Virus record (IMG/VR): IMGVR_UViG_3300025030_000109
Location: 1-61,372 of that record
From: a virus
Reading direction: 5' to 3' (one strand)
Length of the DNA: 61,372 bases
The first letter of the stretch is position 1. Every line of letters starts with the position of its first letter. Under the pieces are notes generated by a model. It was not told the DNA's origin, did not search any database, and saw only the letters and a program-made list of their open reading frames with translations. Shown here piece after piece: positions 7,396 to 61,372 of this stretch. A program made the position numbers and the translations under genes.

Positions 7396-7733
7396 TGGCG
7401 AGAAAGAAGAGAGAGGTCGTTGAACCCTCCGGAATCACCGTCGAGCAGCACCTGAAGAATCTGGGTCTGCTGTCCGAGGCTCCCGAGGCTCCCGAGGCTC
7501 CCGAGGCTCCCGAGGCTCCTGAGGCTCCCGAGGCTCCCGAGGCTCCCGAGGCTCCCGAGGCTCCCGAGGCTCCCGAGGCTCCCGAGGCTCCCGATGAGAC
7601 TTTCGAGGTCTCCCTCTTCGACACCACCCCGGTCTCGATCAACGGCGCGCTTGTCCATCTCCCTCGCGGGACGCAGAAGGTATCCAAGCAGATCTACAAC
7701 ATCCTCCGGGATGCAAATCTCATCAGCACCTAA
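7395..7733 (+). CDS. Virion-associated protein with a (Glu-Ala-Pro)13 linker
   Basis: A 112-residue protein: a basic N-terminus ([12 protein letters not shown]), a short helical part, 13 tandem Glu-Ala-Pro units (residues 28-66), and a C-terminal domain of about 45 residues ([20 protein letters not shown]). Pro-rich acidic repeats of this kind are stiff, extended spacers that hold two domains apart, as in TonB-like or fibre-linking proteins. Start overlaps the stop of the gene before. The function is unknown; the place between head and connector genes suggests a head-fibre or connector part. Confidence 0.7.
7476..7592 (+). repeat. Tandem 9-bp repeat, 13 copies
   Basis: Thirteen head-to-tail copies of GAGGCTCCC (one copy ends in CCT), each coding Glu-Ala-Pro. 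Near-perfect identity at DNA level, including third codon positions, means recent expansion by slippage or unequal exchange rather than protein-level selection alone. Confidence 0.97.
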
Positions 7734-43699: not shown

Positions 43700-46675
43700 T
43701 TAGAGACTCTTCAAATCGCCCCAAGACTCAGGGCTCAGTTTGGCATCGACGGGGAAGGTGATCGGGAGATCTACACCCCAGGCTTTTTTATAAGGCAGGT
43801 TCGACAGCACATGCTTGAAGGTCTCGGCGGCCTGACGAGCCACGGCGTGCGGGAAGATGAAGAACAGGCCGTCGTGGAGCTCGAAGTAGAAATAGCCGTT
43901 GAACTTGGGGAGCAGGTTGCGCGCTACGGCAAGCGCTAGATATTTCTGGTCTCCACCTGTTCCCTGAATAGGGTAGTTGATGGCGGAACTCTCCATCTCC
44001 CAGGCGTCACGACCCGCCCACGAGCCCAGAAGCTGCACCCTGCGGCCGGCGAAGGTCTCAGCATACCCTAGCTGACGACACTTTGCTATCTGAGTCTGCC
44101 AATAGCCAGAGTTGCAGGCACCGCGGCCTCCGTTCGGGCCACCCGAGACTTTGACGAAGGTCGCCTTGTAGGTGGCGAGGAACTGCTTGACCGCCTCTTC
44201 CTGGATGTCCAGCTCGTAATCGACCCGGGCTTTCTTCGTTGCACTTTTAGAGCCAATTCTGTACTGGAAGCTCAGGTTGCTGTTGGAAATCAGGTAGTTA
44301 GATACAGTGAAGCGATTGCGGGGTCCGGCGTTGGTGATATCGTACACCCTTTTGGTTTGCAGCTTGGAGCACACCATCGCTCCACTATTTGATCCAGAGT
44401 CAGCCCCTTTGAGACGAGATTCTGAACTACGATCTCCGCATACCTGACTTCCGGGTGCATTGTCCGGAGTACGTGATACACATGCTTTCTGGGTATCTGC
44501 TTGCCTCTGTACTCCAGGTACTTGTTTCCACGCTTGTTCTGTAAATTCTCCGCTCTCATCAAAAGCCTCAAGTTCCCCGGCTCGTAGTGGCCATCGTTCT
44601 CTTTCCGGTCGATGTCCAGCTTCAGGTACGTTGGATGTGGTAACTCCTTCAGAACGTAGGCTATCGCCTCCGCTACCGTCTTGAATCTGAACTGAATCCC
44701 ACGCCCTCCGTAGTTCTTGTACGACAGGTCTTTGATGTTCTCGCACCGCTGCTTCATCGCGTTGCACCGCTTCTGCACTCGGGCTACTGCCGCGCTGCTG
44801 ATCATCGCGTGACCCTCGTTGGTATGCCGCATCCGGGTTGCGCACGCCTTGCACTGCGTAGCCTTCCCAGATTTCAGGTTGTCCTTGTTCACCCATAAGC
44901 CGCTGCCGCATTTCGTGCAGAGACAGTCGACCTTCAGGACTTTCCCTTCGCGCATCAAATTCTGCGAGACGATCTTCAGGAACCCGAATTGCGAATTTAC
45001 CATCTCCGGTCTGAGCAAGGCGGCTTCCCGCTGCGGCGGCCTGTCCGAACTGGCACCAACTACCGTCCTCCAGATAAACCATGTGGTCGAGCGTTGCTGT
45101 GAGTCCTGCATACGTGATAGTCTCCTTTTCGCCTTGATACACCGATCCTGTGTGCGCGACGAACTCTACCCCATCCCATACTCTCATGTCAAGAGAAACT
45201 TTCTCTATAGCGACTAGGCCACAGTCAGTCAGAACAAGCTCACCCTCCGCCACGCAGAACTTCCCCAGCTTTCTCTGAAGGTTCGCCTCGGCGTCGTCGG
45301 CCGCCACCCGCTGAATCAGGGTGCGGTAGTCGATCCCCGCGATCTGCGCTCCCATGTAGGAGTGCGCGTCCTCGCCAGGTTCCCGCAGGGAGAGCATGGT
45401 CTCGTCGCCGGACGCGACAGCCATCCAGCCGAACTCTTGGCCGGCGAAGTCGAGCTCCACAAGCGTGTACCCTTCGGGCGGCCTGATCAGGCGCCGAAAG
45501 TCCTTGCCTCGTTTCCACTGGTGCAAGGCGATCCCTGTCGGGAACTCCTCGTTGTTGGTCCCCAAATCCTTGTCGCCCTTGCGCTTCTGGCTGGAACTGT
45601 AGGTCATCCTGGAGCTGTACGTGGAGAAGATCCTGGCACCCGGGCGGACGCAGCCGTCACCGTTGTAGGCCAGGCTCTTCAGCGTCCCCTCGGCGTACTT
45701 GGTGCAGTTCCCCTTAGCCTCGCGCACATCCTTCAAGAGCTTCGCCCTGGGGTCGATGAAAGCGAGCTCGTAGAGCGCGTACTTGTCGGTGCTGGGCGCC
45801 TGAGTCTTCTTGGACACACCCTGGATCGGCAGGCCCCATGTATCGTAGAGGAGCGTAGCCAACTGCTTGGGACTTCCCAGATTCACGAAATTGGTCTCCG
45901 GATTCTCCGCCTGAAGCGTCCGCAGCTGCTTTGCCGTGAGCCCGCTCTCGACGAAACCCATCCCCGGGTTAGCCTCCAACAGCGCGGCACGAGCCTTGTC
46001 TCCATCCTTGAGCAGCTGATCTTTCAGCGCCAGGGCTTTCTCCTTCGACGACTTGATACCCAAGACGTGAGTCTTCGCCACCTGCGGGATGCTCTGCGCC
46101 TCGATGAGCGCCGCGCGCCTCTGCTGAGGCGTCAGGTGACTCCAGAACATCTCTCCCAGGCGCACGGCGAAGCGTGTGTCCTCCTTACACCGGAAGAGGA
46201 GCAGCTTCAACTCCTCGGGATCTCTGGTCTGGAAATTGGTGAAGTCCTTGAACCCTGCCTCGTCCGGGAAGAACTCATGCATGGCGGCTTCCAGCTTGTA
46301 GGACTTCCGCTTGGCCGCCGGCACCTCGTCGCCCTCGGGAGCCACAACCCAATGCTTCCACAGCAACATGGAGTCCAACCACTTCAGCCGGAAGACCAGG
46401 TCCTCAAGACCGAGAGCGACCAGGAAGGCGGCGTCGAAGGCTACGTTCCAGCCGCAGATGTAAAGGTCCTGCGCGAGTATCTGCTCCAGGGAGCGGCGTA
46501 TCAGGTCGGTTTTAGGGTAGAGCTGCCCGACGGATTTCTCACCGAAGGTCCACGCAACTGCGGAGACCCAGGCAGCGCCGGAGCAAGCTCGGAAGGGTTG
46601 CAGAGCGTACTCGGGGAGCGATCCCTGGGTCTCCAGGTCGAAGCCTGCAACCTGCGTGTTGAAGTCTATGTTCAA
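43700..46675 (-). CDS. Family A DNA polymerase, interrupted by an intein
   Basis: A 991-codon frame from TTG (GGAGG six bases upstream); after removal of the 325-residue intein (474-798) the polymerase has 666 residues. N-terminal 3'-5' exonuclease: FDLE (Asp13, Glu15), GWNVAFD (Asn77, Asp81), CKED (Asp166). Polymerase domain: motif A LVELDFAGQE (Asp409), motif B RKLGKF joined to SNLSFQYRIG after splicing, and motif C ELHDG (His934, Asp935 in the unspliced count). The intein thus breaks the finger helix that binds incoming dNTP, so the enzyme can work only after splicing. It is the main replicative enzyme, next to ligase and behind an early promoter. Confidence 0.93.
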   Translation of the reverse strand: MNIDFNTQVAGFDLETQGSLPEYALQPFRACSGAAWVSAVAWTFGEKSVGQLYPKTDLIRRSLEQILAQDLYICGWNVAFDAAFLVALGLEDLVFRLKWLDSMLLWKHWVVAPEGDEVPAAKRKSYKLEAAMHEFFPDEAGFKDFTNFQTRDPEELKLLLFRCKEDTRFAVRLGEMFWSHLTPQQRRAALIEAQSIPQVAKTHVLGIKSSKEKALALKDQLLKDGDKARAALLEANPGMGFVESGLTAKQLRTLQAENPETNFVNLGSPKQLATLLYDTWGLPIQGVSKKTQAPSTDKYALYELAFIDPRAKLLKDVREAKGNCTKYAEGTLKSLAYNGDGCVRPGARIFSTYSSRMTYSSSQKRKGDKDLGTNNEEFPTGIALHQWKRGKDFRRLIRPPEGYTLVELDFAGQEFGWMAVASGDETMLSLREPGEDAHSYMGAQIAGIDYRTLIQRVAADDAEANLQRKLGKFCVAEGELVLTDCGLVAIEKVSLDMRVWDGVEFVAHTGSVYQGEKETITYAGLTATLDHMVYLEDGSWCQFGQAAAAGSRLAQTGDGKFAIRVPEDRLAEFDARRESPEGRLSLHEMRQRLMGEQGQPEIWEGYAVQGVRNPDAAYQRGSRDDQQRGSSPSAEAVQRDEAAVREHQRPVVQELRRAWDSVQIQDGSGGDSLRSEGVTTSNVPEAGHRPERERWPLRAGELEAFDESGEFTEQAWKQVPGVQRQADTQKACVSRTPDNAPGSQVCGDRSSESRLKGADSGSNSGAMVCSKLQTKRVYDITNAGPRNRFTVSNYLISNSNLSFQYRIGSKSATKKARVDYELDIQEEAVKQFLATYKATFVKVSGGPNGGRGACNSGYWQTQIAKCRQLGYAETFAGRRVQLLGSWAGRDAWEMESSAINYPIQGTGGDQKYLALAVARNLLPKFNGYFYFELHDGLFFIFPHAVARQAAETFKHVLSNLPYKKAWGVDLPITFPVDAKLSPESWGDLKSL
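44282..45256 (-). mobile_element. Intein in DNA polymerase motif B
   Basis: Residues 474-798 of the polymerase frame. Block A starts with Cys1 (CVAEGELVLTDCGLV), block B is GLTATLDHMVY with the T-x-x-H site, and the end has block F (RVYDITNAGPRNRF) and block G (NYLISN) followed by Ser as the first downstream residue. The penultimate residue is Ser rather than His, an accepted variant. Between block B and block F, in this frame, about 190 residues are Arg/Gln/Ser/Gly-rich without fold character, because that stretch holds an endonuclease gene in another frame. Confidence 0.92.
44290..45111 (-). CDS. HNH homing endonuclease nested out of frame in the intein
   Basis: A frame shifted by one against the polymerase, wholly within the intein. 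From its inner ATG at 45003 (237 residues) it reads as a complete homing enzyme: MVNSQFGFLKIVS, CLCTKCGSGLW and CKAC (zinc knuckle), RCNAMKQRCENIKD, YKNYGGRGIQF, LDIDRKENDGHYEPGNLR and a C-terminal DNA-binding part. It is of the same family as the enzyme at 33281. Two starts are possible: 45111 with AAGGAG ten bases upstream inside block B, or 45003, where GGAG touches the ATG. The endonuclease part begins exactly where the intein's N-terminal splicing domain ends; the stop lies eight bases before the intein end. Confidence 0.88.
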   Translation of the reverse strand: MQDSQQRSTTWFIWRTVVGASSDRPPQREAALLRPEMVNSQFGFLKIVSQNLMREGKVLKVDCLCTKCGSGLWVNKDNLKSGKATQCKACATRMRHTNEGHAMISSAAVARVQKRCNAMKQRCENIKDLSYKNYGGRGIQFRFKTVAEAIAYVLKELPHPTYLKLDIDRKENDGHYEPGNLRLLMRAENLQNKRGNKYLEYRGKQIPRKHVYHVLRTMHPEVRYAEIVVQNLVSKGLTLDQIVERWCAPSCKPKGCTISPTPDPAIASLYLTT

Positions 46676-47787: not shown

Positions 47788-47848
47788 GGTCTTTCTCCTT
47801 TTAGTGAGTTGCGCTGAATCGTTTCGTCGATCTCGGCGGAGCCGAAGG

Positions 47849-48040
47849 CTACCTCTTTTTCACGCTCCAGTACTGCAATATCTCCTCGCTGACCATGCGG
47901 GCTGACCACTCCCCGCCCACGCAGATGTTGCCCTCGCACCACCTCTGGAACTGGTAGGTTTCCTCATGCTGCTCTGCCGCTACTTGCGTCCGGTGGAGCG
48001 AGCCGTCGCTTGCCTCGTATGCTGCTATCTCTCTTGCCAT
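47849..48040 (-). CDS. Small protein, unknown
   Basis: A 63-residue protein (MAREIAAYEASDGSLHRT) with AAAGGAGA ten bases before the ATG. It reads as a helix, a beta hairpin with two Cys-free strands around WCEGNICVGGEW, and a basic C-terminal helix. The two Cys might pair. No family recognised. Confidence 0.6.
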   Translation of the reverse strand: MAREIAAYEASDGSLHRTQVAAEQHEETYQFQRWCEGNICVGGEWSARMVSEEILQYWSVKKR

Positions 48041-48054
48041 CTGATTATCTCCTT

Positions 48055-48228
48055 TTAGTCTCTGTCCCTGCAGTCGTAGATCCGCCCAGTCACGGGATCT
48101 TTCTCCAGGCCGTAGAACTGGTCGCGGTTCGAGTCGTAAGGGGTGGTGAAGCGGGAGGGCATGATGTTGAGCGCCCTCTTGATCTGCTTGCCCTGGTGGG
48201 GCACCGGTCGGTTCTGGGTGAGGGTCAT
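48055..48228 (-). CDS. Small basic protein, unknown
   Basis: A 57-residue protein (MTLTQNRPVPHQGKQ) with AAAGGAGG five bases before the chosen ATG. It contains IMPSRFTTPYDSNRD and ends in an acidic-basic tail (DCRDRD). It starts the unit behind the early promoter at 48257-48285. Confidence 0.6.
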   Translation of the reverse strand: MTLTQNRPVPHQGKQIKRALNIMPSRFTTPYDSNRDQFYGLEKDPVTGRIYDCRDRD

Positions 48229-48256
48229 GGCTTCCTCCTTTAGATCGTTTTCAAGA

Positions 48257-48296
48257 ACTTTACCAGCACCGCTATCCTTTGTCAAGAACTTTATTT
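48257..48296 (-). promoter_or_regulatory. Early promoter, conserved phage type
   Basis: Read leftward: AAATAAAGTTC, -35 TTGACA (48285-48280), 17 bases, -10 TAAAGT (48262-48257). A partial second copy of the upstream element (TCAAGAACTTTA) lies at 48251-48262. Confidence 0.78.
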
Positions 48297-48323
48297 AAAT
48301 TATTTTACGGGTTGGGCTTAGGC

Positions 48324-49229
48324 TTAGATCCTAGGCTTATTGACCGGCGAGATGGTGTGGACGTTCCCACGGCTCAAGACTGTGGCGATGGCGTCCGGGG
48401 AGAACTGCGGGACTCGCTCCCCCTTAGAGAAATGCATGGCAGGCGCGTCCCAGGCCCCACCTCGCTGCGCGATCAGGATCGTCTCGTCGCCGAGCTCCCG
48501 TTTCGCCACCAGAGCTGATTCGAAGTCCGGGTGGGCGCTGATGCATACACCCAGCATCTCCGCGGGGTGCTCAGTGGTGTCCACCAGGAGGAAATGGCTC
48601 TTGTGCGGGTCCTGGCTGCCGTCCTTCCAGTGGGCGGAGATGTGCGCTGCCCGCTCGCGGATAAACCTGCGGGGGTTGGTGAGCAGGAACTTCTGGTCGG
48701 AGAGGGTGAGGATGTAGAATTTCTTGGTCGGCTTGTGGACCAGGTAGTTCGGCGGGCGGAGATCGAGGTCGTGGATGCCCTTGATGGCCTTGCGGGCCTC
48801 TTTGAAAGCGTCCAAGGGGAAAGAGAAGGCCCGAAGGTCTGCGAGCCTCCCAAAGTCGATGTAGTTGCGCTCCTCGCAGGTGTCTCTCTGCTGCTCCACC
48901 ACCAACACCTCGGTCAGCTTACTGTGCTTCAGGCGGTGGATCATCGAGTAGAGGGTGTTGAAGTTCCGGCCAGTGCGGGTGGCGTACACATAGAGCTCGG
49001 AACGGGTCATGCCTGCAATCTTGCGGCGCTCCTCCGGGGAGTAGCGCATCCGCCGATCCACAGGGCTCGCTGTGCGCAGGTAATAACGGACGGTGCTGAT
49101 GCTGACACCATGGGCGGCGGCCGTGAGACGGTCCATCTCCGCCGCGGGCATCATAGGGTGAGCGAGGGAAAGTTCGGCGCGGCTACGACAGATAGCGTCT
49201 CGCAGGTCTGTTTTGAGGGGTCTAGGCAT
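48324..49229 (-). CDS. HTH-domain protein, likely early regulator
   Basis: A 301-residue protein with AAGGAGG six bases before the ATG. Residues 25-55 form a helix-turn-helix (MDRLTAAAHGVSISTVRYYL) and residues 65-95 a second helical element (PEERRKIAGMTRSELYVYA). The remaining 200 residues are an alpha/beta domain (PPNYLVHKPTKKFYILTL, then HPAEMLGVCISAHP) that I do not recognise. It is the first gene leftward from the divergent region and flanked by TTAGGC repeats on both sides, which makes it a good candidate for a regulator of that region. It could also be an endonuclease-type protein with a DNA-binding front. Confidence 0.6.
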   Translation of the reverse strand: MPRPLKTDLRDAICRSRAELSLAHPMMPAAEMDRLTAAAHGVSISTVRYYLRTASPVDRRMRYSPEERRKIAGMTRSELYVYATRTGRNFNTLYSMIHRLKHSKLTEVLVVEQQRDTCEERNYIDFGRLADLRAFSFPLDAFKEARKAIKGIHDLDLRPPNYLVHKPTKKFYILTLSDQKFLLTNPRRFIRERAAHISAHWKDGSQDPHKSHFLLVDTTEHPAEMLGVCISAHPDFESALVAKRELGDETILIAQRGGAWDAPAMHFSKGERVPQFSPDAIATVLSRGNVHTISPVNKPRI

Positions 49230-49259
49230 TTAGGGCCTCCTTGTGGGTGGTTTTGGTAA

Positions 49260-49288
49260 GTAATGCACCAAAAAGCCGAGGATGTCAA
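49260..49288 (-). promoter_or_regulatory. Leftward promoter of the early block
   Basis: Read leftward: TTGACA (49288-49283), about 17 bases, then a weak -10 (CATTAC, with TG before it as an extended -10). It lacks the AATAAAGTTC element of the other early promoters. Confidence 0.5.
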
Positions 49289-49466
49289 CATTTAAATGGT
49301 GTGAGGATTACTGGTGGGGATTGCCGTGATTCCGCGGTGTTATATGCTGTAATGCGTTTTTGGAAAGCGTAGTAGTCAAAAAAGCAACTTTTTTCCCAGT
49401 AGCGGGGCCCAACTTTTTTCAGGAATTTTGGAGGGCTGGGGCGTCGCGGCGGCTTTCTAATTTTAG

Positions 49467-49485
49467 GCGTTCACGTTATGAACGC
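49467..49485. repeat. Perfect inverted repeat
   Basis: GCGTTCA, five-base loop CGTTA, TGAACGC. The flanks continue as TTAG and CTAA with one bulge. It could be an operator for a dimeric protein or, with the A-run that follows, a weak leftward terminator. Confidence 0.7.
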
Positions 49486-49823
49486 TAAAAAAGATGAGCG
49501 GTGCTAGTTTTTTTTTGAAACTTTTGCACATTATATATAGGTCATATAATTCAAACAAACGTAGACCCGCCTGCGGCGCAGCTTTGGTGGGTGGGGTCCA
49601 GCGATCCGTAGTACTATCACGATCCGAAAAAAATTCGCTTTTGTAGTGAGTAAATGATTCTAATAATCGACCGATTTTGGCCGTTTTCCGCTCAACCCCA
49701 AATATGTACGGAAATAAAATAGTTGCATATGCGAAATAACTTCTAATGTTGGCCTAAACCGGCAGTAGTAGATTAAAGACTAAATTGGTCCGTTTTAGGC
49801 TTAGGCTTAGAGGTCGATCAAGA

Positions 49824-50040
49824 CCTGGCACCGCAGCACTAAATGCGTATCTAAACTTATAAAAAGATTGCATATCTAGGAAACTATGGTATGATTTGTT
49901 CAGATTCTAAATAACTAAGGAGGCCTGAAAAATGCCAGTCTACATTTACTCCAGGATAAACAAGGTGATCAAGATCCGCTGCACGCTTTGGAGCCCGCAA
50001 CTCACCGACGAGCAGATACGGGTGGAGCTGGACAAGGAGG
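49824..50040 (+). repeat. Duplicated promoter-gene block, copy A
   Basis: 217 bases nearly identical to 50817-51034. It starts CCTGGCACCGCA, holds a promoter, a ribosome site and the first 37 codons of a small gene. Differences cluster in the promoter spacer and at the 3' end of the gene. Confidence 0.92.
49868..49895 (+). promoter_or_regulatory. Rightward promoter, copy A
   Basis: TTGCAT (49868-49873), 16 bases, TATGAT (49890-49895), followed by AAGGAGG at 49917-49923. It would transcribe the accessory block. Confidence 0.75.
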
Positions 50041-50105
50041 CGGCACAATACCTGCCATTGGTACCGCTACAAAAGAGACGCGATCAAACGAGCCGACGAA
50101 TTTAA
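49932..50105 (+). CDS. Small duplicated protein, copy A, probably frameshifted
   Basis: As read, 57 residues starting MPVYIYSRINKVIKIRCTLW with AAGGAGG eight bases upstream. The tail (YLPLVPLQKRRDQTSRRI) does not look like protein, but one frame over the DNA reads CHWYRYKRDAIKRADEFNK ending at 50130, where TGATG couples to the next gene. So the ancestral product was probably about 65 residues and one extra base sits near 50053 (TACCTGCC). The first 37 residues match the product of copy B. Function unknown. Confidence 0.65.
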   Translation: MPVYIYSRINKVIKIRCTLWSPQLTDEQIRVELDKEAAQYLPLVPLQKRRDQTSRRI

Positions 50106-50129
50106 TAAATGCGAACAGGAGCGGAGCTG

Positions 50130-50624
50130 ATGAAACCCATTTACTTAATTACATTACCCCACAACTTTGGTCGACCCGTCAACCCACAACATATTGTTGC
50201 AGTCTTCACCGACCTGAAAGAAGCACAGCAAGACCACACCGCCCGGACGAGAGCAGCAAACGACACCGCACCCCGCGACCTTGACGGGCACCCCTATCAT
50301 ATTCGTGGGCCGTACACGGACCAGACCGAAGAGGAAGCTTTCGAGATGATCAAAGCCGGAATGATTATGTTGACCGCCCAGGACCTGATAAACGAACTGC
50401 AGCGACTCGGTTATAAAATCGAGGGCACCAACGGAATGTCATTCAACTATTTCAACACCGGCAACAAACGCAAGTATAAAGCCAGATCAATTAGCATCAT
50501 AGAGGCAGATACAAAAATGTCATTCGCACATGTTGACGCCCGCCGCGATGATAATTTTAAAGCACTCCAGGCGCTCAGATATAACCATTTCGCTTACGAC
50601 AAAGAAAGAATCTGGGAGTTGTAG
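50130..50624 (+). CDS. Accessory protein, unknown
   Basis: A 164-residue protein starting MKPIYLITLPHNFGRPVN, with AGGAGCGGAG before the ATG and TGATG coupling to the frame before. The middle has AQDLINELQRLGYKIEG, a helix-turn seen in small phage proteins, and the C-terminal part contains SISIIEADTKMSFAHVD. Low GC relative to the structural genes. No family recognised; early timing suggests host interaction. Confidence 0.65.
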   Translation: MKPIYLITLPHNFGRPVNPQHIVAVFTDLKEAQQDHTARTRAANDTAPRDLDGHPYHIRGPYTDQTEEEAFEMIKAGMIMLTAQDLINELQRLGYKIEGTNGMSFNYFNTGNKRKYKARSISIIEADTKMSFAHVDARRDDNFKALQALRYNHFAYDKERIWEL

Positions 50625-50667
50625 CACCCCGCAGCCGCACCCATAGCCACACCCCCCGACACGTAAC

Positions 50668-50686
50668 CAACCGCGCCACGGCGCCA
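50668..50686 (+). repeat. 19-bp leader repeat, copy 1
   Basis: CAACCGCGCCACGGCGCCA, exactly repeated at 51412-51430. It can fold as GCGC-CACG-GCGC. Both copies lie a few bases before a strong ribosome site. Confidence 0.85.
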
Positions 50687-50703
50687 CCAGGAGGAGATAG
50701 ACA

Positions 50704-50835
50704 ATGAGCACATCGAACGACCAGGTAAAGCACCTATTCGCCAACCACCAATCCGGGGATTCTGCGAATTTGCACAGCGACGGCACCGTACTCAAATCCT
50801 ACTCGACGCCCATCGCCCTGGCACCGCACCACTAA
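50704..50835 (+). CDS. Truncated accessory protein ending in the duplication
   Basis: A 43-residue frame (MSTSNDQVKHLFANHQSG) with GGAGGAG before the ATG. It resembles the N-terminus of a widespread small phage protein that reads 'HLFANQSQ ... SYG-x-x-x-PIA'; here SYSTPIAL is followed at once by the start of duplicated copy B, which supplies the last six residues and the stop. The C-terminal part of the normal protein is lost, so this is probably a remnant cut by the duplication. Confidence 0.55.
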   Translation: MSTSNDQVKHLFANHQSGDSANLHSDGTVLKSYSTPIALAPHH

Positions 50836-51034
50836 ATGCGTATCTAAACTTATAAAAAAGATTGCATATATAGGAAACTGTGATATTATTTATTCGTATT
50901 CTAAATAACTAAGGAGGCCTGAAAAATGCCAGTCTACATTTACTCCAGGATAAACAAGGTGATCAAGATCCGCTGCACTCTCTGGGGCCCGCAGCTCACC
51001 GACGAGCAGGTACTGGCCGAGCTGGACAAGGAGG
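50817..51034 (+). repeat. Duplicated promoter-gene block, copy B
   Basis: Second copy of 49824-50040, with one extra A in the A-run and scattered changes. Confidence 0.92.
50862..50889 (+). promoter_or_regulatory. Rightward promoter, copy B
   Basis: TTGCAT (50862-50867), 16 bases, TATTAT (50884-50889). The two copies differ in the spacer and -10, so strength may differ. Confidence 0.72.
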
Positions 51035-51045
51035 TGGAGAAATGA
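50926..51045 (+). CDS. Small duplicated protein, copy B
   Basis: A 39-residue protein, MPVYIYSRINKVIKIRCTLW then GPQLTDEQVLAELDKEVEK. AAGGAGG lies eight bases before the ATG and the stop overlaps the next ATG. It equals the N-terminal part of copy A without its tail. The conserved sequence between the copies, except at the end, suggests that the first 37 residues matter. Function unknown. Confidence 0.65.
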   Translation: MPVYIYSRINKVIKIRCTLWGPQLTDEQVLAELDKEVEK

Positions 51046-51410
51046 AAAAGACCTTGCAACAGGTTGAATCTGAGGGGCGAAAGGCCGGCGAAATATGGGT
51101 AAATAACCCCGTCTGTATCGTCAACCTATACCGCACCAGTGATGAACGTGGGGCATGGTGGGTAGGTCACGCATCCGGCCGAACAAACGACATTACCCAC
51201 CGTTTACCTGCGCCGACCAGATATCAACTGGTAGAGATCATGAACCCAAATTGGGAGAAAAACGAAGCCGGCCAATGGAGCTTCACATACCAGATTCTGA
51301 GCCAACATGATACGCTGCAGGAGGCGCAGGACGCCCACGCGCGGATAACTAGATTGACCGGCCATCCGATGATAGAGAAATGTCACAGATACGTTTTGCT
51401 GGGACAATAA
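51042..51410 (+). CDS. Accessory protein, unknown
   Basis: A 122-residue protein (MKKTLQQVESEGRKAGEIW) coupled to the small gene before by ATGA. It has WWVGHASGRTNDITHRL and a C-terminal helix (TLQEAQDAHARITRLTGHP). The fold looks alpha/beta. No family recognised. Confidence 0.65.
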   Translation: MKKTLQQVESEGRKAGEIWVNNPVCIVNLYRTSDERGAWWVGHASGRTNDITHRLPAPTRYQLVEIMNPNWEKNEAGQWSFTYQILSQHDTLQEAQDAHARITRLTGHPMIEKCHRYVLLGQ

Positions 51411-51411
51411 A

Positions 51412-51430
51412 CAACCGCGCCACGGCGCCA
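51412..51430 (+). repeat. 19-bp leader repeat, copy 2
   Basis: Exact second copy of 50668-50686, again just before a GGAGG ribosome site. Confidence 0.85.
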
Positions 51431-51443
51431 GGAGGGAGTAAGA

Positions 51444-52358
51444 ATGAACTACCCAATTCAGGAGCACGAACACTCAATCAACAACGTACCCGGCCGCATG
51501 TTCACCGTTCACGAGCCGCAGGAGGTGAGAGGTAACAAGGTGCACCGCAACCAGACATGGATCAGCGAAGGCCGCCCGGTGAAAGGATACGGGACCAACG
51601 GCGTCATGCATGTCAAAATCCGCTTTGACGACGAGTGTAAGAACGGCCACCAGTCGTTCAGCATCACGGCAGACGTTTACACCGTCGAGAGCCGCCGCCA
51701 GAAAGACATCGCAGCCAGTGGGTGTATGAATGATGAGATAGCCAATATTTTCCCCGAACTGGTACCGCTGATCAAGTGGCACCTGATGAGCACAGACGGG
51801 CCTATGCACTACATCGCCAACACCGTTTACCGCGCCAGCGACAGAGACGCCAACGGGCGCAGGAAGGGCGAGGCGAGCGCATGGCGTACCGTCGTTTACT
51901 TCGGCAATAGCCCGGTGTCTCACGCTGTCAGCGAGAAGCTGGCGCAGTGGATAGAGCAGCACCCGCGCCCCCAGGTCAAAGAGATTCAGCACCCGGACAA
52001 AGGGAAGCCGGGCGCATACCAGTTCGCCCCGAAATACACCTTTAACGGCTTCTGCGAGCGCAGGCATGAGTGCCCCTTTAACGATGAGGAAACAGCGCGT
52101 CAATGGGCGGCAGCCTTCAATACGATAGACTACCGCTTCGACAGGATCACCACCGGATACAGCGAAGGCAAAACCCGCGACCTTGACGCCGCCAGGAGCA
52201 GCGCAGTATGGCCCGACGCAACGGACGAGGAATTGAGCACCGAGCGCGACACCCTGAAAGCCGCACTTGAGGCACGCTTACCCGGTCTGATAGCTGAATT
52301 CCGCGCCGACATGGAGCGGATAGGTTTCTTGTGGGAGCCTGACCATAGCGAGGTGTGA
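51444..52358 (+). CDS. Conserved accessory protein, unknown
   Basis: A 304-residue protein with GGAGGGAG before the ATG. Parts in order: an N-terminal VPGRMFTVHEPQEV, a beta-rich stretch (HVKIRFDDECKNGHQSFSI), a core with EIANIFPELVPLIKWHLMS and PMHYIANTVYRASDRD, and a long C-terminal helix (ERDTLKAALEARLPGLIAEF). The 'DGPMHYIANT-x-YHA-x-DRD' core is common to many phage accessory proteins whose function I do not know. Largest gene of the accessory block. Confidence 0.7.
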   Translation: MNYPIQEHEHSINNVPGRMFTVHEPQEVRGNKVHRNQTWISEGRPVKGYGTNGVMHVKIRFDDECKNGHQSFSITADVYTVESRRQKDIAASGCMNDEIANIFPELVPLIKWHLMSTDGPMHYIANTVYRASDRDANGRRKGEASAWRTVVYFGNSPVSHAVSEKLAQWIEQHPRPQVKEIQHPDKGKPGAYQFAPKYTFNGFCERRHECPFNDEETARQWAAAFNTIDYRFDRITTGYSEGKTRDLDAARSSAVWPDATDEELSTERDTLKAALEARLPGLIAEFRADMERIGFLWEPDHSEV

Positions 52359-52360
52359 CC

Positions 52361-52573
52361 ATGGACATCGAGAGAGCGAGAAAACTAAAAAGAGGCCAGA
52401 TGGTACACTGCCCTGCAGACCGAGGCGAACCCGCATACACCGGGCGAGTAGTGCAGGAAAACGCAATAACCGAGACCGCAGCCGAATACGATGCAAACGG
52501 CTCTAAATACATTTGGGTTTTAGTACAAGGCCCGCTTCACAAAACAACTTGGCCGTCTAACCGTCTAGGATAA
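52361..52573 (+). CDS. Small beta-barrel-like protein
   Basis: A 70-residue protein (MDIERARKLKRGQMVHCP) with a short SH3-like pattern (GEPAYTGRVVQEN, YIWVLVQG) and ending in PSNRLG. GAGGTG lies five bases before the ATG; an in-frame GTG six bases upstream overlaps the previous stop and is an alternative start. Such small barrels bind nucleic acid or protein partners. Confidence 0.6.
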   Translation: MDIERARKLKRGQMVHCPADRGEPAYTGRVVQENAITETAAEYDANGSKYIWVLVQGPLHKTTWPSNRLG

Positions 52574-52600
52574 CCACACCAACCCACGGGAGCCACGACC

Positions 52601-52804
52601 ATGAGAGACCGCAGATACACCATAACCCAGGAGTACACCGGAGCAGCCACACGGCAACATGTTCTAAGGTTCTGCAACGACTTCGTGTCCACACACCGCA
52701 CCCGCGACCAGGCAGCAGCCGCCCAGGAGCGACACGCAGAGGAACGCAGCGCCCAACTTGCCGGATGGATGCAGCCCACATTGCCAGGAGGCACGCCGCT
52801 ATGA
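52601..52804 (+). CDS. Small accessory protein
   Basis: A 67-residue helical protein (MRDRRYTITQEYTGA) with GGGAG before the ATG and a stop overlapping the next ATG. It is Arg/Gln/Ala-rich (RTRDQAAAAQERHAEER). No family recognised. Confidence 0.55.
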   Translation: MRDRRYTITQEYTGAATRQHVLRFCNDFVSTHRTRDQAAAAQERHAEERSAQLAGWMQPTLPGGTPL

Positions 52805-52959
52805 CATTTGACCAAGTAAAAACCAAAGCAGTCAAACAATGGGACGGTTATCTTGTGATCACACCAGCCGTCGCCCGTCGTATATCGACAACCGGAAAGC
52901 TTGTCGAAGTGGCCGTGATCCACGCCCGCACCCCGAGACCCAAGGAGGCGCAGCCGTGA
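52801..52959 (+). CDS. Small accessory protein
   Basis: A 52-residue protein (MTFDQVKTKAVKQWDGYL) coupled on both sides by overlapping start and stop codons. A short alpha/beta pattern (VITPAVARRISTTGKLVEV) precedes a basic tail. No family recognised. Confidence 0.55.
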   Translation: MTFDQVKTKAVKQWDGYLVITPAVARRISTTGKLVEVAVIHARTPRPKEAQP

Positions 52960-53012
52960 TCCTCATCGTCGCCCTGATCCTAGTCGCAGTCTACGCACAC
53001 CGTTATGTCTAA
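52956..53012 (+). CDS. 18-residue membrane micropeptide
   Basis: GTG start overlapping the previous stop, with a perfect AAGGAGG six bases upstream, opens a frame of only 18 residues: a hydrophobic core (ILIVALILVAVYA) and a basic end (HRYV). This is just one short membrane span. The strong ribosome site argues that it is really made. Confidence 0.55.
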   Translation: MILIVALILVAVYAHRYV

Positions 53013-53062
53013 AACCCACACACCCGCGCAGCCCCAGGCGCCAAAGAGAGGAGAGCAGACAA

Positions 53063-53299
53063 ATGGATAAAGACCAGTTCAATCAGAAGCTAGAAACGCT
53101 TTGCGAGGAGTTGTTTTTCCAGGTGAGCGCCGAGGCTAACAGGCTATTCCAGAGCGGAGCCGTTGACGTTGACAGCTTCCAGGACGATATGAGGCTCCCC
53201 AAGATCATCCTTTGCGCAGCGCTTCACAACGAGGCGGAGCAATACAGACCCCGAGATAAGAAGCTGCTCAAAGAGTTGCGGAACCTTACCAGGTTCTAA
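53063..53299 (+). CDS. Small accessory protein, last of block
   Basis: A 78-residue helical protein (MDKDQFNQKLETLCEELF) with GAGGAGAG before the ATG. A charged middle (GAVDVDSFQDDMRLPKI) joins two helices. A terminator follows 24 bases after its stop. No family recognised. Confidence 0.6.
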   Translation: MDKDQFNQKLETLCEELFFQVSAEANRLFQSGAVDVDSFQDDMRLPKIILCAALHNEAEQYRPRDKKLLKELRNLTRF

Positions 53300-53322
53300 G
53301 CCCTTCACCCCAAAGAAACGAA

Positions 53323-53351
53323 GCCCGCGAGCAGTCAGCGCGGGCCTTTTT
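53323..53351 (+). terminator. Terminator of the accessory block
   Basis: GCCCGCG (53323-53329) pairs with CGCGGGC (53339-53345); C and five T follow. It ends the rightward early transcript. Confidence 0.9.
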
Positions 53352-53713
53352 GCGTCCGCCCACGTCCCATTTTTCCCGCGGCCCTTCGGGTTGCGCCTAT
53401 TCGGCGCTTGACAGGCGCTGACGCGCCAAAGGCATAGGTGCTGCTGCGCAGCTTAAAGCCCCGCTTCCGCTTCGCTACAGCTCGATGTAGCGGCTTCGCC
53501 GCGAAAAGGCCACACACAAAGCAAGTTTGCGCTTCGCGTGATCCAGGCAGAGGCCTTGGGGGGCTACGCTGCGCTCGCCCCGTAGGCTATTCATGCCCCC
53601 CGTAATACAGCCCCTCTCAGTCGCCCAATTTTTATAAAGTACTGAATTTACTACGAAATCCCGACGCCGCGACATACACGCCAGAAAAATTCCCAAAAAT
53701 CCAACCTCAGGAC
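53352..53713. other. Hairpin-rich non-coding stretch
   Basis: About 360 bases without a credible gene. It is crowded with short GC-rich hairpins having TTC-type loops, such as GCGGC-TTC-GCCGC at about 53481-53493, GCTGCTGCGCAGC, and CGCTTCGCG, and ends in an AT-rich part before the next promoter. It differs in look from all phage genes around it and resembles plasmid-type non-coding DNA. A small structured RNA, a packaging signal or a captured foreign piece are all possible. Confidence 0.45.
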
Positions 53714-53752
53714 AATAAAGTTCTTGACACTCAGCCCCGTAGCCGCTAAACT
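53714..53752 (+). promoter_or_regulatory. Rightward promoter of the conserved phage type
   Basis: AATAAAGTTC, -35 TTGACA (53724-53729), 17 bases, -10 TAAACT (53747-53752). It is the only rightward member of this promoter family and stands at the head of the block that leads to terminase. Confidence 0.78.
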
Positions 53753-53780
53753 CCTGAGAAATACTGAACTTGGGGGGGAC

Positions 53781-54353
53781 ATGATGAGCGTCATTGAATT
53801 CAGCGGCGGGCAGATAAACCACCGCTACCTGATGGGTAAAAGCAAAAACGACCTCGCACACATGGTTCTGGACTACCTGACAGTATGGGAGAAATCACAG
53901 GCCGATGTAAAAAGGCTGACACAAGAACTGGCAGCCGCGAGGAGACCCCCCATGCAACCGATCGACCAGTCCATCGTAACCCCGACCGAAGGGGACTGTA
54001 TGCGCGCCACCGTCGCAACACTGCTCGATCTACCTCTCGACGCCGTGCCTCACTTCATGAGGTTCCCGGGAGATGAGTGGTGGAGAGTCTATGTGGGCTT
54101 CTTCTGGGCGCTCGGGTGGGAGATCGGAGAGTGGAAAACTGAGGGAGCCATAGACCCCGACAGCGGGGTCAACGGATTCTTCGACGCCGCAGTACCATCC
54201 AAGACGTTCCCCGACAAGAAGCACGCCGTGGTGATCGACAGCGCAGGAGTCGTGGTCCACGACCCGAACCCCAACAGGGCGTGGATGGGCGCGAACGTCT
54301 TGGAGAGCGGGGAGCTTATCGGGTACTACACGATGAAGAGAATCACTGAGTAA
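53781..54353 (+). CDS. Papain/C39-like domain protein
   Basis: A 190-residue protein with a GGGGGGG tract before the ATG. An N-terminal coiled coil (about 1-65) is followed by a domain with TPTEGDCMRATVATLL, KKHAVVIDSAG and VVHDPNPNRAW. Cys, His and Asp in that order match the catalytic set of cysteine peptidase-like folds (C39/papain type). Similar domains occur in many phage proteins with no known substrate. It is read from an early-type promoter, so it may act on host proteins. Function inferred only. Confidence 0.6.
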   Translation: MMSVIEFSGGQINHRYLMGKSKNDLAHMVLDYLTVWEKSQADVKRLTQELAAARRPPMQPIDQSIVTPTEGDCMRATVATLLDLPLDAVPHFMRFPGDEWWRVYVGFFWALGWEIGEWKTEGAIDPDSGVNGFFDAAVPSKTFPDKKHAVVIDSAGVVVHDPNPNRAWMGANVLESGELIGYYTMKRITE

Positions 54354-54360
54354 CAAATTT

Positions 54361-54371
54361 ACTCAATGAGT
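54361..54371. promoter_or_regulatory. Palindromic operator-like site
   Basis: ACTCAATGAGT, the same palindrome as ACTCAGTGAGT at 3151-3161 except for the centre base, 21 bases before the -35 of the next promoter. A further ACTCA half-site follows at 54381-54385. Confidence 0.6.
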
Positions 54372-54391
54372 ACAAATTCCACTCATTTAGC

Positions 54392-54420
54392 TTGACAACA
54401 CACTGAAAGTATGCCCTAAT
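54392..54420 (+). promoter_or_regulatory. Late promoter for the small terminase unit
   Basis: TTGACA (54392-54397), 17 bases, CCTAAT (54415-54420). Transcripts would begin about 54427, two bases before the next ATG. Confidence 0.55.
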
Positions 54421-54428
54421 CCCACCCC

Positions 54429-54965
54429 ATGAGCGCACATCAAGACACATGGGGCCTGGACGATCTGATGGAGGAGCCTTTCGAGCCCCTCTTGGAAGAC
54501 CTGCGTTCCGGCTCCGAGGTCTTTCTCCCGACCGGTTTCACCGGTCACCAATTCGTCGACTATCACGACGAAACACCCTCAAAAAAATACCTCTCCGAGT
54601 GGCCGGCGCAGTTCCCGGTCGCCCTCGCCATGGAGGTGGAGGATCTCCCCGCCATCCTGGCCCGCTTCGAGATAACCCCCGAAAGATTCGAGCTTCTGAA
54701 ACCTCTCCCGGCGTTCCGCAAGGCGGTGGCCGAGGCGCAGCGCGACGTGCGTGAGCAGGGGCATACCTTCAAGCTGAAATGCAAAGGGATCGCCGAGGAC
54801 TTCCTGGACAATCTCTACCACGAGCTGCAGAACCCACAGGTAGGCCTCTCGACCAAGGTCGATGTCTTCAAATATCTCACCAAGATGGGTGGGCTGGAGC
54901 CTGTGCCGGTCCCCGCCACCGCTGCATCTTCCGCTGTCGCCGTGCAGATAAACATCAACATCTGA
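54429..54965 (+). CDS. terS: Terminase small subunit-like protein
   Basis: A 178-residue protein. After a 60-residue acidic, loose N-terminus comes the helical pattern I associate with podovirus small terminases: LPAILARFEITPERFELLK, FRKAVAEAQRDVREQG, FKLKCKGIAEDFLDNLYHEL, VFKYLTKMGGLEPVP and an end in INI. It would recognise the packaging site and hand DNA to the large subunit. The ATG has no ribosome site and lies about two bases from the predicted transcript start, so it may be translated leaderless; a second ATG at 54468 is another option. It is parted from terL by lysis and tail-spike genes. Confidence 0.65.
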   Translation: MSAHQDTWGLDDLMEEPFEPLLEDLRSGSEVFLPTGFTGHQFVDYHDETPSKKYLSEWPAQFPVALAMEVEDLPAILARFEITPERFELLKPLPAFRKAVAEAQRDVREQGHTFKLKCKGIAEDFLDNLYHELQNPQVGLSTKVDVFKYLTKMGGLEPVPVPATAASSAVAVQININI

Positions 54966-60518: not shown

Positions 60519-61372
60519 TGGCTGAAGGAATTGACTACACACCCAGTCCTGTAATTCGGGAATTCATGCGGGACAACTCCTTCTTCCGCGTGGTGAAGGG
60601 GCCATACGGGTCCGGAAAAACGACCGGGTGTATCATGGAGGCGCTCCGACGATGCATCCAGATGCCGCCCTGCCCAGACGGAGTGCAGCGCAGCAGATGG
60701 GTCTTTGCGCGTAATACGAAAAGCCAACTTACCGACACCCTTCTCAGATCTGTTCTGGAGCTTATCCCGCCGGGACTCGGGTCGTGGAGCGTATCCAACT
60801 TCATCTACACACTGAAGTTCGGGACCGTACATGCGGAGTGGCTCTTCCGGAGCTTGGATTCTCCGGAGGACATCCAGCGACTACTGAGCCTGCAGCTAAC
60901 GGGAATTTTTATTGAGGAATGCCGTGAGATTCCGCTAACTTTGGTGCTGGAGGCGCAGACAAGGCTTCGGCGATTCCCGAGAATTCAAGATGTCCCCGAG
61001 TACTGGAGCGGCATGATCTGCGCTACGAACCCCCCAGAAATAGATTCCGACTGGTACAAGCTGATGGAGCATCTGCCGCAAAAAGAGGACGAACCAACTA
61101 CGATAGTGCCCGCAGCTGTTTTCAAGCAACCCTCGGCGATGTCCCCCGAAGCCGAGAACCTGCAATACCTACACAAGGACTACTACACCGACCTTATGAA
61201 GGGGAAATCTCAGGATTGGATAGACACGAACATCCACAACCTGTACTCCAAATCCCAATTCGGCAAGCCAGTCTATGAACGCTCTTTCCAATACGACAAA
61301 CGGGTGCAGTCGAACTTACCCATCTATCAAAACCTACCAGTGGTGGTCGGGATCGATGGGGCTCGGAATCCG
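60518..61372 (+). CDS. terL: Terminase large subunit, N-terminal part (ATPase)
   Basis: First 285 codons of the packaging motor; the rest is at 7-741. Walker A is GPYGSGKT at residues 28-35, the adenine-side arginine pattern lies in VFARNTKSQLTDTLL, and Walker B is GIFIEECREI with Glu133-Glu134 (the usual Asp is Glu here). ATNPPE serves as the coupling motif. It pumps DNA into the head by ATP hydrolysis and cuts with its C-terminal nuclease. The ATG overlaps the endonuclease stop. The frame runs off the window end only because the circular genome was opened here. Confidence 0.93.
   Translation, partial: MAEGIDYTPSPVIREFMRDNSFFRVVKGPYGSGKTTGCIMEALRRCIQMPPCPDGVQRSRWVFARNTKSQLTDTLLRSVLELIPPGLGSWSVSNFIYTLKFGTVHAEWLFRSLDSPEDIQRLLSLQLTGIFIEECREIPLTLVLEAQTRLRRFPRIQDVPEYWSGMICATNPPEIDSDWYKLMEHLPQKEDEPTTIVPAAVFKQPSAMSPEAENLQYLHKDYYTDLMKGKSQDWIDTNIHNLYSKSQFGKPVYERSFQYDKRVQSNLPIYQNLPVVVGIDGARNP
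61247..61372. repeat. Terminal overlap, right copy
   Basis: Exact copy of 7-132. Counting it once gives a circle of about 61,240 bp. Confidence 0.93.

What the first reader, a model, noticed from the sequence alone, without database searches (positions are those of the whole stretch)
49824..51045. Recent duplication of a promoter-plus-gene block that cut one gene and left the other copy frameshifted
217 bases recur about 993 bases apart. Copy B begins inside a small gene (50704) and supplies its last codons and stop, so that gene lost its C-terminus. In copy A the small gene is cut short by one extra base near 50053; one frame over, the sequence CHWYRYKRDAIKRADEFNK runs on to a TGATG junction with the next gene. 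The two promoters differ in spacer and -10.
Basis: seen in the sequence. Interest (0 to 1): 0.6.

Follow-up and report, generated by a model that had tools for sequence, protein, structure and literature searches.

The report
Duplicated phage early promoter truncating a gene
A 220-base promoter-plus-gene-start block occurs twice in the early region of an uncultivated phage, and the second copy begins exactly where a known phage gene is cut off after 38 codons; this is a clear but ordinary case of phage genome shuffling.

Summary
The repeat is real: 49824-50043 and 50817-51037, 203 of 221 columns identical, 993/994 bases apart. Each copy holds one sigma70-like promoter, a leader with AAGGAGG, and the start of the same small ORFan.

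The strongest new evidence concerns the cut gene (50704-50835). A profile of 8 relatives (~310 aa, phrog_7247-like) matches its first 38 residues (positions 5-43 of 314, E 1.4e-7 over the whole window). The similarity stops at codon 38, whose last base, 50817, is the first base of copy B. No other part of that gene remains in the window. So 'that gene lost its C-terminus' is supported.

The frameshift in copy A is not established. The alleged extra base (50052/50053) lies beyond the end of the repeat, so copy B is no comparator, and no relative of the small gene was found in IMG/VR, GTDB genomes or GenBank phages. Codon usage argues against the current frame after 50053 but does not single out the proposed one.

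'Recent' is only relative: 8% divergence, with differences clustered around an identical 81-base run. No relative carries either copy, including the closest found (capsid 95% identical), so the earlier copy number is unknown. New member of a known kind.

The parts
49824..50043 (+). Repeat copy A: promoter, leader, start of the small ORFan
50817..51037 (+). Repeat copy B (92% identical to A)
49868..49895 (+). Promoter A: TTGCAT - 16 - TATGAT with TG one base before the -10 (extended -10), A/T-rich upstream
   Evidence: sequence; pattern unique to the two copies. Promoter activity is inferred; the consensus scan does not list it because the -35 is weak
50862..50889 (+). Promoter B: TTGCAT - 16 - TATTAT, extended -10
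   Evidence: activity inferred
49932..50105 (+). Small ORFan in copy A, 57 aa as it stands; an alternative frame from 50053 runs to 50133 (TGATG)
   Evidence: no homologue
50926..51045 (+). Small ORFan in copy B, 39 aa, stop overlapping the next ATG (ATGA)
   Evidence: coding-like codon usage
50133..50624 (+). ORFan downstream of copy A (163 aa; AGGAG upstream)
50704..50835 (+). Truncated gene: first 38 codons of a ~310-aa phage family (phrog_7247-like) plus five codons and stop from copy B
51042..51410 (+). ORFan downstream of copy B (122 aa); the AAGGAGG of repeat B (51028-51034) lies 7 bases before its ATG
50664..50691 (+). Gene-junction motif TAACCAACCGCGCCACGGCGCCACCAGG just before the truncated gene
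51408..51435 (+). Second copy of the gene-junction motif, before the 304-aa gene; begins with the stop codon of the preceding gene

Best explanation
A ~220-bp early-region block (host sigma70-type promoter with extended -10, leader, ribosome-binding site and the first ~37 codons of a small ORFan) became duplicated by illegitimate recombination in this phage's lineage. Copy B landed in, or was joined to, codon 38 of a phrog_7247-like gene. That gene's remaining ~270 codons were lost, and B's 3' end was joined, at an AAGGAGG that now lies at ribosome-binding distance, to the start of another small ORFan. The outcome is two successive promoters, each starting a short ORF that abuts or overlaps the next ORF, so that two ORFan genes (50133 and 51042) each get their own early promoter and translation start. 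Shown: the repeat, its borders, the truncation at the border, and the absence of the block in sampled relatives. Inferred: promoter function, direction (A as parent, B as derivative, because A sits at the head of the divergent control region and B is bounded on both sides by gene breakpoints) and the recombination route.
For: Repeat and exact borders. The family profile's only significant hit in the whole window is the truncated ORF (E 1.4e-7), profile positions 5-43 of 314, ending on the codon whose third base is the first base of repeat B; no C-terminal remnant elsewhere. All 19 loci of the family run on well past that point. 29.0 bits against at most 12.6 for 20,000 shuffles. Repeat B ends just after AAGGAGG, which lies 7 bases before the ATG of the next gene. 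The syntenic early region of six relatives, found through the divergent 301-aa gene, lacks the block, and three of them hold a full-length family gene there. Copies are 92% identical, more alike than the capsid-region blocks compared with the nearest relative (71-90%).
Against: No relative carries the block in one copy, so duplication inside this genome is not separated from import of copy B with its downstream gene from a different phage. The clustered differences (81 identical bases in a run, P 0.003 under random placement) do not fit simple uniform decay of a duplicate. The -35 hexamer is weak and the promoters were not picked by the consensus scan.
Confidence: 0.68

Rival explanations
1. 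Copy B came in from another phage together with the downstream 122-aa gene, by recombination between related phages that share this early promoter block; the two copies are homologues, not a duplication within one genome.
For: 8% divergence with strong clustering, including seven changes packed in 28 bases around the -10 next to 81 identical bases; the downstream genes differ completely; short gene-junction motifs, one also present in relative G001, flank the 744-bp unit that holds the truncated gene, B and the 122-aa gene.
Against: No other phage with the block was found in 2.9 million IMG/VR contigs, GenBank phages or GTDB genomes.
Confidence: 0.22
2. The two blocks are a maintained regulatory pair (copies kept alike because the leader and first codons bind a regulator or set translation), and the small ORF is a portable start cassette rather than a gene with its own product.
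For: The identical run spans the leader, AAGGAGG and codons 1-17; both small ORFs abut or overlap the next ORF.
Against: No structured RNA: both leaders fold worse than most shuffles. Only two copies; codon usage of the small ORF is coding-like in frame 0.
Confidence: 0.12
3. Assembly artefact: the repeat or the extra base comes from misassembly of strain variants in a metagenome.
For: The record is an assembled metagenomic contig and no reads are at hand.
Against: The copies differ at 18 positions, sit in different unique sequence, and the truncated gene matches its family only up to the border.
Confidence: 0.06

Closest known systems
Promoter-early stem-loop (PeSL) cassettes of T4-type phages (Arbiol et al. 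2010; Comeau et al. 2014; read only as described in PMC4503421 and PMC3950731)
   Same: Repeated early-promoter cassettes in front of novel ORFs, associated with gene shuffling in a variable region.
   Different: No stem-loop next to the promoter that stands out from shuffles, no terminator-like site on the + strand near the copies, only two copies, and the block here reaches 37 codons into a gene.
Start-associated sequences (SAS/ESAS) of Cluster K mycobacteriophages (PMC3203893)
   Same: Short repeats placed at translation starts, as the 28-nt motif at 50664 and 51408 is.
   Different: Different sequence, two copies instead of 11-19 per genome, and the 220-bp repeat is far longer and holds a promoter-like site.
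phrog_7247 family (~310-365 aa, unknown function)
   Same: The truncated ORF at 50704 matches the N-terminus of family members (residues 1-38).
   Different: About 270 residues are missing and replaced by five codons of the repeat.

Membership tests
PeSL cassette | Early promoter in the repeated unit | tested here: inconclusive
   Extended -10 promoter-like site in each copy; not called by the consensus scan; activity not testable here
PeSL cassette | Stem-loop/terminator joined to the promoter | tested here: not met
   Fold of 49780-49868 z -1.33 (23 of 200 shuffles as good); no + strand terminator-like site in 47800-54500
PeSL cassette | Many copies per genome | tested here: not met
   Two copies in 61 kb
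SAS/ESAS | 13-bp GGGATAGGAGCCC repeats at starts of 11-19 genes | tested here: not met
   The junction motif has another sequence and two copies
phrog_7247-like gene (50704-50835) | N-terminal motif ...QVxHxWA...SYSTxIA | tested here: met
   (W is F in the window ORF)
phrog_7247-like gene (50704-50835) | Full length (~310 aa or more) | tested here: not met
   43 aa; similarity ends at residue 38: a truncated remnant

The most novel reading that the evidence does not exclude
The repeated 5' leader plus first 17 codons is a portable expression cassette that this phage copies in front of newly acquired ORFans, giving each its own early promoter and a coupled translation start, in a phage outside the T4 group.
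Probability: 0.12. Interest if true: 0.5.

Novelty: new member of a known kind. Interest (0 to 1): 0.27.

Why it matters
It is a clean example of how phages can put ORFan genes under early promoters: the border of a duplicated promoter block coincides to the base with the breakpoint of a gene whose full-length relatives are known. It adds a case outside T4-like phages of promoter blocks taking part in early-region shuffling, but it does not change current ideas.

Tried and rejected
Megablast and blastn of the region against GenBank phages: no match to the block. Small ORFan against IMG/VR (two readings), GTDB genomes and GenBank phages: nothing. The 163-aa and 122-aa ORFs: no relatives, only sub-threshold Pfam/PHROG hits. 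An exact search for the 18-nt leader core in IMG/VR gave four contigs in which only the ribosome-binding-site neighbourhood matches and the genes are unrelated: chance. A weak 31-base match to promoter A in two relatives has no fitting leader or gene after it: rejected. A programmed +1 frameshift at 50052 was considered and rejected: no known slippery or stop-assisted site in CAATACCTGCC (sequence, own knowledge). RNA structure in the leader: rejected. A C-terminal remnant of the cut gene in the window: none.

Full report
What was checked. The window is a virus record of 61,372 bases with a 126-base direct repeat at its ends (7-132 = 61247-61372), so it is probably a complete phage genome. Its capsid protein belongs to the N4-gp56 family; the best named match is Pseudomonas phage Rollin at 45%, and the nearest IMG/VR record, G001, has a 95% identical capsid.

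The repeat. Copies A (49824-50043) and B (50817-51037) align over 221 columns with 18 differences. Nine differences lie in the upstream and promoter part, seven of these between 49876 and 49903; then 81 columns are identical (leader, AAGGAGG, codons 1-17); the last nine lie in the coding part, in three synonymous and five amino-acid-changing codons. An identical run that long has P 0.003 if differences fell at random. Each copy holds TTGCAT-16-TATGAT or TATTAT with TG one base before the -10; this 28-mer pattern occurs only here. Between the flanks the only notable similarity is an independent 28-nt gene-junction motif.

The cut gene. The ORF at 50704-50835 has 43 codons. Its first 38 residues resemble the N-terminus of ~310-aa proteins that lie in the same early region of relatives G007, G008 and G012. 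Those proteins match phrog_7247, function unknown. A profile of eight members gives one significant hit in the six-frame translation of the window, this ORF, E 1.4e-7, profile positions 5-43 of 314, ORF residues up to 38. Codon 38 is 50815-50817; repeat B starts at 50817. A profile of 19 N-termini gives 29.0 bits against at most 12.6 for 20,000 shuffled versions. One caution: the search that gathered the 19 loci used patterns from an alignment that included this ORF, but each locus was confirmed with a relative, not with the ORF. The residues LAPHH and the stop come from the repeat. No C-terminal part was found in the window.

The other border. Repeat B ends in AAGGAGGTGG, after which the 122-aa ORF starts at 51042; so the repeat's own AAGGAGG (51028-51034) now sits 7 bases before that gene's ATG. 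In copy A the same letters are inside the small ORF and no start codon follows at that distance.

The alleged frameshift. The repeat ends at 50043, nine bases before the alleged extra base, so copy B is no comparator. The read-through 65-residue version has no relative in IMG/VR or GTDB genomes. Codon usage trained on 17 long ORFs gives -1.34 bits per codon for frame 0 after 50053, -0.40 for the proposed frame and -0.17 for the third frame, against 0.42 (sd 0.25) for in-frame and -0.84 (sd 0.34) for out-of-frame windows of those ORFs. So the current frame does not look coding there, but the proposed one is not proven. Its TGATG overlap with the 163-aa gene is suggestive.

Relatives. The divergent 301-aa gene (48324-49229) anchors the syntenic region in G001, G005, G007, G008, G009 and G012. 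None holds the block or the small ORFan. The region varies strongly among them; G007 has a small duplicate of the end of the same family gene (84% over 49 bases), so this locus has been rearranged elsewhere too.

Interpretation. The simplest account is duplication of the promoter block with loss of most of the gene it entered, with A as parent. Import of B plus its downstream gene from a related phage is not excluded. PeSL cassettes of T4-type phages are the nearest known kind in effect, as described in PMC4503421 and PMC3950731; the two original papers are not held. The stem-loop and the high copy number were tested and not met, so it is not filed as a PeSL. The finding is real, and its main inference, the lost C-terminus, is now supported by homologues; it remains an ordinary kind of phage genome rearrangement.

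Noticed in passing
50664-50691, 51408-51435; L055 (G001) reverse strand from 2459: A 28-nt GC-hairpin plus ribosome-binding-site motif, TAA(C/A)CAACCGCGCCACGGCGCCA(CC)AGGAGG, stands directly before the ATG of two genes here and of a different gene in relative G001; in two of the three places it begins with the stop codon of the preceding gene. A possible gene-junction linker.
   Followed up: partly
L056 3633-3681 and 3940-3988: In relative G007 the end of the intact phrog_7247-like gene is duplicated in a small neighbouring ORF (84% over 49 bases).
   Followed up: partly
43700-46675 (-), 44290-45111 (-): The 991-aa ORF that looks like a DNA polymerase seems to carry an in-frame insert (possible intein), and another reading frame inside it holds a 273-aa ORF resembling a homing endonuclease. 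By eye only, not tested.
   Followed up: no
7474-7600: About a dozen copies of a 9-base unit coding for an (EAP) repeat in a short ORF.
   Followed up: no
7-132 and 61247-61372: 126-base direct terminal repeat, 100% identical: the record is probably a complete genome.
   Followed up: no
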